This document shows, piece by piece, positions 4,413 through 63,217 of a stretch of DNA of 64,000 bases. How positions within the stretch are numbered: position 1 is the stretch's first letter; each line of letters begins with the position of its first letter. Under the pieces are notes generated by a model. The model made no database searches. It was not told where the DNA came from and saw only the letters and a program-made list of their open reading frames with translations. The DNA lies in contig NZ_JAINZO010000002.1 in assembly GCF_020179605.1 (NCBI RefSeq), positions 186,001 to 250,000 on the forward strand, given 5' to 3'. Source of the stretch: Geomonas agri (lineage in GTDB: Bacteria > Desulfobacterota > Desulfuromonadia > Geobacterales > Geobacteraceae). Position numbers and translations under genes: made by a program.

Positions 4413-4446
4413 CCCTCACCCCAACCCTCTCCCGGAGGGAGAGGGA
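4413..4446. repeat. Family A GC-rich intergenic palindrome
   Basis: This copy of the CCCTCACCCCAACCCTCTCC / GGAGGGAGAGGG palindrome lies between the LtaS-like terminator and the end of the reverse-strand dehydrogenase. The same motif with small changes recurs in many gaps of this window (14.5, 17.2, 20.8, 29.0, 34.9, 35.1, 36.2 and 43.1 kb). Confidence 0.7.
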
Positions 4447-5207: not shown

Positions 5208-5384
5208 CTCGACCTCCGATCCAACGTTGCGGCAACAGGGTCAAAACTTACAACAGCATCAGGGTGATCGCAATAGAAACGGGTAGGTTGCAAAGAATCC
5301 TCGTCTCCCTTGTGTATATTTGAACCGACCTTTCCAGAAGCTTTGATAATGCTGATCGTTAAGCGCCGCGCGTGACCGAGCGTA

Positions 5385-5419
5385 CCCCCCTTTGCGAAGG
5401 GGGGACAGGGGGGATTTGC
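5385..5419 (+). repeat. Left inverted repeat (family B)
   Basis: This is the left 35-bp terminal repeat. It is the exact reverse complement of 5778-5812 and carries an internal 8-bp hairpin CCCCCCTT-TGCG-AAGGGGGG. Its final AGGGGGGA run lies about eight bases before the GTG start of the enclosed gene and could act as the ribosome-binding site. Confidence 0.9.
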
Positions 5420-5420
5420 C

Positions 5421-5819
5421 GTGGTTAGACCATACAACCATCAGTTGAAGGAGCCATCGCGCAAACTTCGCAAGCAGATGACTTATGCTGAGCAGCTGCT
5501 GTGGTCTCATCTGCGGGGCAAACAACTCCTTGGACTCCACTTCAACCGACAGAAACCGGTTGGTCCCTATGTCGTTGACTTCTATTGTGCTGCGGCACTG
5601 CTGGTGATTGAGGTGGATGGCAGCCAGCACTTGCAAAGGGAGCATAGTAAACGTGATGCGGCACGCGATCTGTTTCTGCTGCAACATGGACTGATGGTGC
5701 TAAGGTTCGACGATCGGCAGGTATTGTTGGAAACGACAGCGGTTCTGGAAGAGATTTTTGGAGTGTGCCAGCAAAGAGCAAATCCCCCCTGTCCCCCCTT
5801 CGCAAAGGGGGGAACGTGA
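5421..5819 (+). CDS. DUF559 domain endonuclease-like protein (Vsr-like fold)
   Basis: A 132-residue protein of the DUF559 family, related to Vsr/PD-(D/E)xK nucleases. The family N-terminus (Arg-x-Leu-Arg-x-x-Met-Thr-x-Ala-Glu) is at about 14-24. Putative catalytic residues are Asp53 (VVDFYC) and Glu64-Val-Asp66-Gly with His70 (IEVDGSQH). The GTG start at 5421 follows directly after the left inverted repeat. The last dozen residues (ANPPCPPFAKGGT) are encoded by the right inverted repeat and the stop lies just outside it, so the element and the reading frame are intimately joined. It shows no relation to the neighbouring SDR or lar genes. Its biochemical activity is inferred from fold membership only. 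Confidence 0.85.
   Translation: MVRPYNHQLKEPSRKLRKQMTYAEQLLWSHLRGKQLLGLHFNRQKPVGPYVVDFYCAAALLVIEVDGSQHLQREHSKRDAARDLFLLQHGLMVLRFDDRQVLLETTAVLEEIFGVCQQRANPPCPPFAKGGT
5778..5812 (-). repeat. Right inverted repeat (family B)
   Basis: This is the right 35-bp terminal repeat, a perfect reverse complement of 5385-5419. It is translated as the C-terminal tail of the DUF559 protein. The flanks (GCGTA before the left repeat, AACGTG after the right) do not give a clear target duplication. Confidence 0.9.
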
Positions 5820-5906
5820 TAGCGCCGTCTAATTCTGGCGGCAAAATCGTCGTGACTCCATGGTACCCAATCAATCATTCTCACCCGGAGGCTTTTCCTT
5901 TCTACT

Positions 5907-5920
5907 CCGCAACGTTGCGG
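5907..5920. promoter_or_regulatory. 14-bp perfect palindrome upstream of larB
   Basis: CCGCAACGTTGCGG is self-complementary and lies about 140 bp before larB. A TTGACA hexamer follows at 5925-5930, but I see no good -10 partner. A similar AACGTTGCGGCAAC sequence lies before the SDR gene at 5223-5236. It is a possible operator for an unknown regulator. Confidence 0.3.
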
Positions 5921-6058
5921 CACATTGACATAACAGCCGCATCCGTCTCTCAGAAATTTCCCGGCTCCTGCCAAAAAAAGCATTTTTTAGCAGCGAATAC
6001 GAGGTTTGTATGTTAGCCTTAATCGCATTTTCCAACCTCCGGAGGCAGCTTCTTATTC

Positions 6059-20773: not shown

Positions 20774-20884
20774 TCCCCTCGTCCTTCGGGAGAGGGGCTG
20801 GGGGTGAGGGTGTTGCCCCCGACTGTGATAGCACAAAAACAAGAAGCTCCCTCACCCCAACCCTCTCCCAGAGGGAGAGGGAGT
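20774..20884. repeat. Inverted pair of family A palindromes
   Basis: Two copies in opposite orientation (about 20774-20810 and 20849-20884) fill the argD-argF gap. One reads CCCCTCGTCCTTCGGGAGAG and the other CCCTCACCCCAACCCTCTCC. Together they could fold into a long hairpin in the arg transcript. Confidence 0.7.
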
Positions 20885-28990: not shown

Positions 28991-29116
28991 GCCCCCTCCC
29001 CTGCCCTCCCCCTCCGGGGGAGGGAGCAGCAACTCCCACCTTGGGAGTAGAGTCAACTCCCACCGTTTGGGCGAGGGTCGACTCCTCCCCCTGGAGGGGG
29101 GAGGCCGGGAGGGGGG
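28991..29116. repeat. Inverted pair of family A palindromes between gatA and gatB
   Basis: Copies at about 28991-29026 and 29083-29116 lie in opposite orientation, with a small hairpin ACTCCCA-CCT-TGGGAGT between them. The gap therefore can form an extended stem between two subunits of one enzyme. Confidence 0.65.
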
Positions 29117-34700: not shown

Positions 34701-34974
34701 GTACCGTTTCCTGCGCCGCCTGGAGAACCGTCTGCGCATCATCCACGACTACTCGATGAACGACCTGGGCGGGCCGCTCAAATACCTGAACAAGCTGGCC
34801 AGGAGGCTCGGCTACGACCCTATGCTGAAGAACCCGGGACAGGCGCTGATGGCTGATTACGAGCGGGTCACCGAGGCGGTGCGTGAGGTGTACGGCAGGA
34901 TTCTTGGGGGCGAAGCGGCAAGCGAACAGGCGGCCACAGATGCACAGTCCCCTCCCCCGGAGGGGGAGGGTTAG
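31756..34974 (+). CDS. glnE: Glutamine synthetase adenylyltransferase/adenylyl-removing enzyme
   Basis: A 1072-residue bifunctional protein that adenylylates and deadenylylates glutamine synthetase in response to PII and glutamine. Two nucleotidyltransferase domains are visible: [20 protein letters not shown] (about 231) and [20 protein letters not shown] (about 768), each with the GSxxxxDxD metal motif. The intervening and C-terminal helical domains are standard. The final residues ([11 protein letters not shown]) and the stop codon are contributed by an intergenic family A palindrome, an odd terminal extension. It is translationally coupled to mtnA. Confidence 0.94.
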
Positions 34975-35121
34975 GGAGGGGGAAATCCCCGCGCGGAAAA
35001 GACTTGGGCGACGCCGGGTAGCGGCTTCGCTCAAAAATCCCCCTTCCCAACCTCCCCCCTCCGGGGGGAGGAGCATCCTGGCCGTCCCCTCGCCCTCTGG
35101 GAGAGGGGCAGGGGAGAGGGC
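34945..35121. repeat. Cluster of three family A palindromes after glnE
   Basis: Copies occupy about 34945-34983, 35039-35073 and 35084-35121. The first overlaps the 3' end of glnE and encodes its stop. The first and second are in opposite orientation and could pair. This is the densest cluster of the family in the window. Confidence 0.7.
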
Positions 35122-35592: not shown

Positions 35593-35659
35593 CCCCCCTT
35601 TCGCAAAGGGGGAAGGTCGAAGATCTAAGGGGACAGGCACCTGGCGGAGCCAGTCCCCT
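35593..35659. repeat. Adjacent family B and family C hairpins
   Basis: CCCCCCTTTCGCAAAGGGGG (35593-35612) is a family B hairpin like the ends of the DUF559 element. AGGGGACAGGCACC and CAGTCCCCT (35628-35659) form a family C hairpin. They lie between two convergent genes and may act as a transcription end. A near-identical C copy occurs at 63188-63217. Confidence 0.75.
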
Positions 35660-36198: not shown

Positions 36199-36292
36199 TC
36201 CCCTCTCCCTCCGGGAGAGGGCCAGGGTGAGGGTATCGCCGATGGCACCGCCCTCACCCGCCCTGCGGGCACCCTCTCCCATAGGGAGAGGG
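36199..36292. repeat. Inverted pair of family A palindromes between ileS and lspA
   Basis: Copies at about 36199-36233 and 36251-36292 lie in opposite orientation (CCCCTCTCCCTCCGGGAGAG, then CCCTCACCCGCC and CCCTCTCCC...GGGAGAGGG). They separate ileS from lspA within what is usually one operon. Confidence 0.7.
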
Positions 36293-63170: not shown

Positions 63171-63217
63171 CCCGAAAGGGGGGAAAAGGGGACAGGCACC
63201 TGACGGCGCCAGTCCCC
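63171..63217. repeat. Degenerate family B and intact family C repeat
   Basis: CCCGAAAGGGGGG (63171-63183) resembles a decayed family B hairpin and is followed within five bases by a family C hairpin (GGGGACAGGCACCTGACGGC...CAGTCCCC, 63188-63217). The C copy differs from that at 35629-35658 at only two of 30 positions. Confidence 0.7.

What the first reader, a model, noticed from the sequence alone, without database searches (positions are those of the whole stretch)
5385..5812. DUF559 nuclease gene packaged between perfect 35-bp inverted repeats
The sequence shows a single-gene unit whose ends are exact 35-bp inverted repeats. The left repeat carries the purine run before the GTG start and the right repeat encodes the protein's last residues. 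Each repeat is itself a hairpin. Other copies of the hairpin occur without the gene (35593-35612; a decayed one at 63171-63183). This parallels REP elements spread by RAYT transposases, but with a Vsr-like nuclease. That the protein moves or copies the repeat is inference.
Basis: partly seen in the sequence, partly recalled or inferred. Interest (0 to 1): 0.8.

Follow-up and report, generated by a model that had tools for sequence, protein, structure and literature searches.

The report
Nuclease gene flanked by triplex-forming repeats
A small nuclease gene sits between inverted copies of a widespread bacterial hairpin repeat whose origin has been unexplained, and the same pairing recurs in many bacterial phyla, so the nuclease is a good candidate for what maintains or spreads those repeats.

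Summary
A DUF559 gene (5421-5819) lies between inverted repeats: 35 bp exact, 38/39 over 39 bp.

It is not a local oddity. 47 of 71 DUF559 loci in the order, and 46 of 78 across many phyla, have flanking inverted repeats. In 431 kb of hairpin-rich genus DNA, the four places with such a pair all enclose DUF559.

The repeats match a described orphan family: intrastrand-triplex motifs, PIT or BoxC (PMC4666352), reported without link to mobile elements and with unclear origin. E. coli copy no. 9 lies beside ycjD, a DUF559 gene.

New here: repeat sequence follows the nuclease rather than the host (24 of 26 paralog comparisons; Mantel r 0.40, permutation maximum 0.16). Repeat number follows strong DUF559 matches in 247 genomes (median 16 versus 0), within families too, and not Y1 transposases. 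Relatives have gene-free orthologous sites, some with a lone hairpin.

Best reading: a REP/RAYT-like partnership built on a Vsr/homing-type nuclease. That the nuclease cuts or moves the repeat is inferred. No clean target duplication was seen, and the E. coli repeats look old.

The parts
5381..5419 (+). left repeat: hairpin (5385-5404) plus G-rich tail toward the gene; its tail supplies a purine run before the GTG
5421..5819 (+). DUF559 (PF04480) nuclease gene, 132 aa, GTG start, TGA at 5817-5819; PD-(D/E)XK/Vsr-like
   Evidence: fold and invariant residues
5778..5816 (-). right repeat, inverted copy of the left one; overlaps the 3' end of the gene and encodes its last residues
35593..35612 (+). 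solo hairpin of the same type without the gene
34950..34981 (+). solo hairpin+tail of the type that flanks another DUF559 gene of the genome (L001)
28993..29024 (-). solo hairpin+tail, same wider family
29087..29114 (+). solo hairpin+tail, same wider family
4414..4445 (-). solo hairpin+tail, TM-type
20776..20881 (.). two hairpin+tail units, TM-type
35087..35119 (+). solo hairpin+tail, TM-type
36201..36292 (.). hairpin+tail and a second hairpin, TM-type

Best explanation
The unit is repeat-DUF559-inverted repeat, about 435 bp. The repeat is an intrastrand-triplex-type motif (hairpin plus G-rich third strand). SHOWN: DUF559 genes of many phyla are flanked by such repeats; repeat sequence tracks the nuclease; repeat number tracks presence of the nuclease; the unit is present or absent at orthologous sites. 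INFERRED: the nuclease recognises its cognate repeat, probably when the hairpin/triplex extrudes on single-stranded DNA at replication forks, and nicks or cuts there or at similar target DNA. Break repair using another copy as template then writes in a repeat, or a repeat pair with the gene between. Solo repeats would be the frequent product and the gene-bearing unit the rare one, as in REP/RAYT, but through a Vsr/homing-type nuclease and host repair rather than an HUH transposase.
For: Flanking inverted repeats at 47/71 and 46/78 DUF559 loci (at least two loci are in both sets) versus 1/142 displaced controls. In 431 kb the pairs found enclose DUF559 only, 4 of 4 such genes. Hairpin+tail pattern within 250 bp of 100 of 151 loci, Markov background 0 per 64 kb in 20 shuffles. 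Mantel r=0.40 on 4,147 pairs at non-orthologous sites, maximum of 5,000 permutations 0.16; 24 of 26 paralog comparisons follow protein rather than genome; r=0.405 with the two duplicates removed. Pattern hits: 53 genomes with a strong DUF559 match median 16, the other 194 median 0, p=1.8e-14; reversed-pattern control p=0.36; within-family permutation p=0.0002; holds among genomes without Y1 transposase, p=3.8e-4. Gene-free orthologous sites at five element loci, some with a lone hairpin. E. coli: median 21 versus 5 repeat places in records with and without the ycjD-side repeat. Fold nearest NGO0050 and homing endonuclease I-Bth0305I. A DUF559 protein (VsrA) is required for the SOS response of a Caulobacter methylase mutant (PMC12907096, passages); segments with a transposase and DUF559 are recombination hotspots in Legionella (PMC12308824, passages).
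Against: No nuclease activity on the repeat has been shown. No clean target-site duplication. 21 of the 194 genomes without a strong DUF559 match have 20 or more hits, and 17 of the 53 with one have fewer than 5; overlapping hits are counted apart, so counts are inflated. 24 of 71 and 32 of 78 DUF559 loci lack an inverted pair at the threshold. In E. coli the two repeat loci compared (three strains each) keep the repeat or a shortened form, and no empty site was seen. 15 of 92 IR+ loci have outward tails. At 13 of 20 gene-free orthologous sites examined there is no hairpin. VsrA is read by its authors as a mismatch-repair nuclease.
Confidence: 0.6

Rival explanations
1. DUF559 is a caretaker: it processes or repairs the triplex/hairpin repeats, which arise by other means, and its gene stays near them, but it does not spread them.
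For: Vsr-like fold; the repeats are linked to instability (PMC4666352); ycjD is single copy in E. coli.
Against: Does not explain why the gene itself is enclosed by an inverted pair, or the gene-bearing units in different places.
Confidence: 0.17
2. DUF559 genes are cargo of repeats moved in trans by another enzyme, such as a Y1 (IS200/RAYT) transposase.
For: REPs are thought to be moved that way (recalled); Y1 genes are common (178 of 247 genomes); in Legionella a DUF559 gene shares repeated segments with a transposase (PMC12308824, passages).
Against: Y1 presence has no clear effect on hairpin number among DUF559- genomes (p=0.14) or DUF559+ genomes (p=0.21), though overall p=0.015; the DUF559 effect holds without Y1. 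Only DUF559 is enclosed in the 431 kb scanned. Other transposase families were not tested.
Confidence: 0.1
3. The repeats are terminators or structural hot spots, and the association is passive.
For: They are hairpins, intergenic in E. coli (PMC4666352); the site of the window unit carries other insertions in relatives.
Against: Other genes are not enclosed in 431 kb; repeat sequence follows the protein; earlier work reported no terminator activity (PMC4666352, discussion).
Confidence: 0.06
4. DUF559 is a methylase-coupled mismatch-repair (VSP) nuclease as proposed for Caulobacter VsrA, unrelated to the repeats.
For: VsrA genetics (PMC12907096, passages); a Deinococcus DUF559 gene is listed among genes with changed expression when a cytosine methylase is absent (PMC6712171, passage); Vsr fold similarity.
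Against: Does not predict the flanking repeats, the covariation or the co-occurrence. Whether the Caulobacter gene has repeats was not tested here.
Confidence: 0.07

Closest known systems
Intrastrand triplex motifs (TM, TMECO; earlier PIT; BoxC), PMC4666352
   Same: Same hairpin+third-strand layout; consensus CCCTCNCCC N3-6 GGGNGAGGG N3 GGGNGAGGG; intergenic, multi-copy, inverted pairs; copy no. 9 of MG1655 is the repeat beside ycjD
   Different: The paper names no partner gene ('nuclease' and 'ycjD' occur 0 times in its main text) and leaves origin open; the window's own repeat is a C6/G6/G6 variant, not the exact consensus
REP/BIME sequences with RAYT (Y1/HUH) transposases
   Same: Palindromes in inverted pairs flank a low-copy chromosomal nuclease gene; many solo copies elsewhere (system description partly recalled)
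   Different: The enzyme is PD-(D/E)XK/Vsr-like DUF559, not HUH; no GTAG or CGTC tag; triplex-type tail instead
EDxHD (Vsr-like) homing endonucleases, e.g. I-Bth0305I (3r3p)
   Same: Nearest fold outside DUF559; one paper already places a DUF559 gene in the EDxHD family (PMC9403480, passage); small nuclease gene present/absent at orthologous sites
   Different: No intron or intein seen here; flanked by inverted repeats that also exist alone in many copies
NGO0050 (3hrl), DUF559 of Neisseria gonorrhoeae
   Same: Same family and fold; the gonococcal DUF559 locus looked at here also has hairpin+tail repeats on both sides by eye (IR score 32, under the threshold)
   Different: Titled only a putative endonuclease-like protein in the PDB; whether the locus seen here encodes NGO0050 itself was not checked
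Caulobacter VsrA (CCNA_02930)
   Same: DUF559 protein; SOS induction in the methylase mutant depends on it
   Different: Interpreted as mismatch repair tied to a cytosine methylase

Membership tests
REP/RAYT system | enzyme is a Y1/HUH transposase | tested here: not met
   the protein is PF04480; Vsr/homing fold
REP/RAYT system | GTAG (or CGTC) tag next to the palindrome | tested here: not met
   not in the window's repeat; arms printed for other loci show C/G arms and a G tail, read by eye
REP/RAYT system | palindromes flank a low-copy chromosomal gene and exist in many solo copies | tested here: met
REP/RAYT system | single-strand, strand-specific transposition | not testable with these tools
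   no experiment
Triplex motif (TM/PIT/BoxC) repeats | C-arm, G-arm, third G-strand with short loops | tested here: inconclusive
   met by the E. coli ycjD repeat (listed TMECO no. 9) and by the P6 pattern at 100 of 151 loci; the window's own repeat has C6/G6/G6 blocks but a longer first loop
Insertion sequence | known transposase and target-site duplication | tested here: not met
   no transposase domain in the protein; no clean duplication in the empty-site comparisons, where the joints are diverged
EDxHD/Vsr-like homing endonuclease | PD-(D/E)XK/Vsr fold with conserved acidic and His residues | tested here: met
   E24, D53, E64, D66, H70 invariant in 40 sequences; 3r3p at TM-score 0.58-0.62 by query length, E about 0.002; which residues make up the EDxHD motif is recalled
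EDxHD/Vsr-like homing endonuclease | homing into a cognate gene-free allele | tested here: inconclusive
   gene-free sites exist; transfer not observed

The most novel reading that the evidence does not exclude
A third kind of bacterial small mobile repeat, distinct from MITE/IS and REP/RAYT: triplex-forming hairpins spread by a dedicated Vsr/homing-type DUF559 nuclease through break-and-copy repair, with each nuclease lineage specific for its own hairpin, accounting for BoxC/PIT/TM repeats from E. coli to cyanobacteria.
Probability: 0.45. Interest if true: 0.92.

Novelty: new variant of a known kind. Interest (0 to 1): 0.8.

Why it matters
These repeats have been catalogued for decades (BoxC from the 1990s is recalled; PIT and TM work of 2000 and 2015 is cited in or is PMC4666352), in more than 260 genomes by that paper, with no mover, no partner gene and unclear origin. 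A cognate nuclease turns that into directly testable biochemistry in E. coli K-12, gives a large 'unknown function' family a job, and suggests that the REP/RAYT strategy arose independently with an unrelated enzyme.

Tried and rejected
Rfam: no match in the window at gathering threshold. PADLOC: a DpdF match over residues 51-104 (E=6.5e-9) and a poor mREase_II match; a defence role was not pursued. Y1 transposase as the mover: not supported as sole cause. Passive capture of genes by inverted repeats: not seen in the 431 kb sample. The first sliding-window controls (0 of 416, 3 hits in 2,403 windows, all at DUF559 loci) used 150-base steps and were insensitive; (15-base steps) replaces them. 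E. coli strain comparison for clean insertions: two loci only, no empty site. A test that the tail copies the G-arm was weak (0.68 versus 0.62 for shuffled tails; my stem finder was poor). PDB profile hits to enterotoxin B chains (E 0.016 and worse) are taken as chance; mitochondrial-ribosome RAP-like chains rank 4, 6 and 7.

Literature: ten searches. The term DUF559 is in 14 held papers. I saw the passages with the term in 13 of them; two of these are DUF5590/DUF5593. PMC7461981 I saw in the listing only. None of the passages links DUF559 to flanking hairpin repeats; closest are the EDxHD homing placement (PMC9403480) and the Legionella transposase/DUF559 repeats (PMC12308824). A phage protein with a DUF559 relative (PMC10969951) shows that my phage search, made with one protein, is not exhaustive. 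The library lacks most subscription papers, so absence in print is not proved.

Rows dropped or doubtful: of the matches, eight weak or fragmentary ones were not fetched as loci (72 were used). L061 and L108 had too little flank. L123 was an N-run artefact (47 of 79 becomes 46 of 78; it is still in the 94). L129 and L145 duplicate L042 and L018, so the 92 loci are 90 distinct ones. L011, L013, L019, L068 and L071 were on the wrong strand at first or flipped; L068 (a broken copy) is probably mis-oriented there, so one of the 24 wins is weak. 'DUF559-' means no match at E 1e-20; 38 of these 194 have a weaker match. In one search one 132-kb record was dropped; ycjD status there is inferred from coverage of the ycjD-side repeat.

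Full report
Observation. The window's DUF559 gene (5421-5819, GTG; PF04480 E=6.5e-34) lies between repeats 5381-5419 and 5778-5816, inverse copies at 38 of 39 positions and exact over 35. Each is a hairpin followed, on the gene side, by a G-rich tail. The right copy lies inside the 3' end of the gene and the stop codon follows it. The host genome has three DUF559 matches.

Breadth. From 58 genomes of the order I took 72 DUF559 loci; 47 of 71 testable ones have a flanking inverted repeat of score 36 or more within 450 bases. In 80 named loci from many phyla (the best 80 of 574), 47 of 79 pass, of which one is an N-run artefact, leaving 46 of 78; displaced positions in the same loci give 1 of 142. 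Two loci are in both sets. The layout recurs while the sequence varies: C-arm, loop, G-arm, two or three bases, G-tail. Of 92 positive loci (90 distinct) the tail points inward in 63, outward in 15, unclear in 14; median unit length is 469 bp; the stop codon lies inside the right repeat in 34, before it in 26, after it in 32. Six further loci that I picked from the 42 plasmid-collection hits (N. gonorrhoeae in a chromosome-sized record, Synechocystis, Picosynechococcus, Pseudanabaena, S. meliloti pSymB, Deinococcus) show hairpins on both sides by eye; three of six pass the score.

Specificity. Scanning 431 kb of this genus (window, G006, G015, G009) in 15-base steps (28,186 positions), inverted pairs that good occur at four places: the window, one in G006, two in G015. 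All four hold the DUF559 genes known there; no other gene is enclosed.

Repeat follows nuclease. For 92 loci, hairpin similarity correlates with protein identity (Mantel r=0.40; maximum of 5,000 permutations 0.16) after removing 39 pairs at orthologous sites; without the two duplicates r=0.405, maximum of 2,000 permutations 0.148. In genomes with several DUF559 genes, the hairpin is closer to that of the nearest protein in another genome, at a non-orthologous site, than to that of any paralog in 24 of 26 cases (the L068 case is doubtful). L002 and L066 are the losses.

Repeat number follows nuclease. In 247 genomes of the phylum, a hairpin+tail pattern has median 16 hits in the 53 genomes with a strong DUF559 match (E 1e-20 or better) and 0 in the other 194 (p=1.8e-14); the pattern read backwards shows no difference (p=0.36). 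Overlapping hits are counted apart. Permuting labels within 21 mixed families (100 genomes) gives p=0.0002. Against: 21 of the 194 have 20 or more hits and 17 of the 53 have fewer than five. Y1 transposase presence (178 of 247) does not explain it: overall p=0.015, but no clear effect among DUF559- (p=0.14) or DUF559+ (p=0.21) genomes, while DUF559 matters with Y1 (p=2.5e-11) and without (p=3.8e-4).

Presence and absence. I examined 20 orthologous sites in relatives, those where both flanks could be read. At the window's site, 8 relatives lack the gene; two carry a hairpin there, one of them (G005) with a similar tail. At the L069 site, G006 (flanks 94-98% identical) has a lone hairpin where G015 has the unit. 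At the L044 site seven relatives have gaps of 7-321 bp, too short for the unit, with hairpins in four (one just outside the gap); at the L057 site three relatives and at the L048 site one relative lack gene and hairpin. So 7 of 20 gene-free sites have some hairpin. Several other hairpins in the collinear G006/G015 stretches are present in only one of the two, or replaced by another type (by eye). Joints are too diverged to read a target duplication.

E. coli. ycjD is a DUF559 gene between fabI and sapF, matched in 3,365 of 5,426 genomes; in two strains inspected that lack the contiguous locus, an efflux operon follows fabI. Its stop codon lies in a hairpin, and a second hairpin 3' of it is TMECO no. 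9 of PMC4666352. Upstream, a hairpin of another type is present, so the K-12 locus is one-sided and scores only 18. This repeat has 95,682 places in 5,376 genomes at E up to 10, 95,609 on chromosomes. In 59 sampled records, those carrying the ycjD-side repeat have median 21 places (37 records), the others 5 (22 records), p=2.9e-9, but clades are not independent and 8 of the 22 have 15-26. At two other repeat loci, three strains each, the repeat is kept, in two strains with internal deletions, so in E. coli the system looks old.

Protein. AlphaFold model pLDDT 85. PDB: 3hrl (NGO0050, E=5.4e-8), then 3r3p (homing endonuclease I-Bth0305I, E about 0.002), with Vsr (1cw0, E=0.08) among weaker matches. 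E24, D53, E64, D66, H70 are invariant in 40 sequences. In vivo effect for the family: VsrA of Caulobacter contains DUF559 and is required for the SOS response of a methylase mutant (PMC12907096; passages).

Literature. PMC4666352 (sections 12 and 15, first part of section 20, and passages) describes the repeats as intrastrand triplex motifs, in more than 260 genomes, intergenic in E. coli, associated with instability, not found associated with transposons, phages or plasmids, origin unclear; 'nuclease', 'ycjD' and 'geobacter' occur 0 times in its main text. PMC3733652 (passages) deals with GTAG/CGTC REPs. PMC9403480 (passage) places a DUF559 gene in the EDxHD homing family; PMC12308824 (passages) reports transposase/DUF559 segments as recombination hotspots. 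None of the ten searches listed in Tried and rejected turned up the link between DUF559 and these repeats.

Interpretation. The association rests on several lines: flanking pairs, specificity, covariation and co-occurrence. Recognition of the cognate repeat is the simplest reading of the covariation, but cutting and spreading are inferred. It works like REP/RAYT; it is not a member of it, because the enzyme and tag differ.

Noticed in passing
window 5208-6058; relatives L075, L081-L083: The orthologous SDR-larB gap in relatives reads as a BrnT/BrnA toxin-antitoxin pair or remnants of one (names recalled from reading the sequence, no search made), so the spot takes different insertions in different species.
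   Followed up: no
L216, L217: In two cyanobacterial plasmids the DUF559 gene lies beside DUF1156 (a DNA-modification-type family, recalled), hinting at a defence or modification context for some members.
   Followed up: no
L069 (G015): The second DUF559 copy in G015 is broken into two frames between near-perfect repeats, while another copy (L048) is intact.
   Followed up: partly
G001, G012: Matches of 130-180 bases joining a repeat to a part of the gene (for example G001:C12:1105811-1105988) look like remnants of former gene-bearing units.
   Followed up: no
E. coli fabI-sapF region, L179 and L180: In two strains without the contiguous fabI-ycjD-sapF locus, a TetR plus RND efflux operon follows fabI.
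   Followed up: partly
G009, L184 and L186: The L069 region is split in G009 between two distant places in opposite orientation, as if an inversion broke near the hairpins.
   Followed up: no
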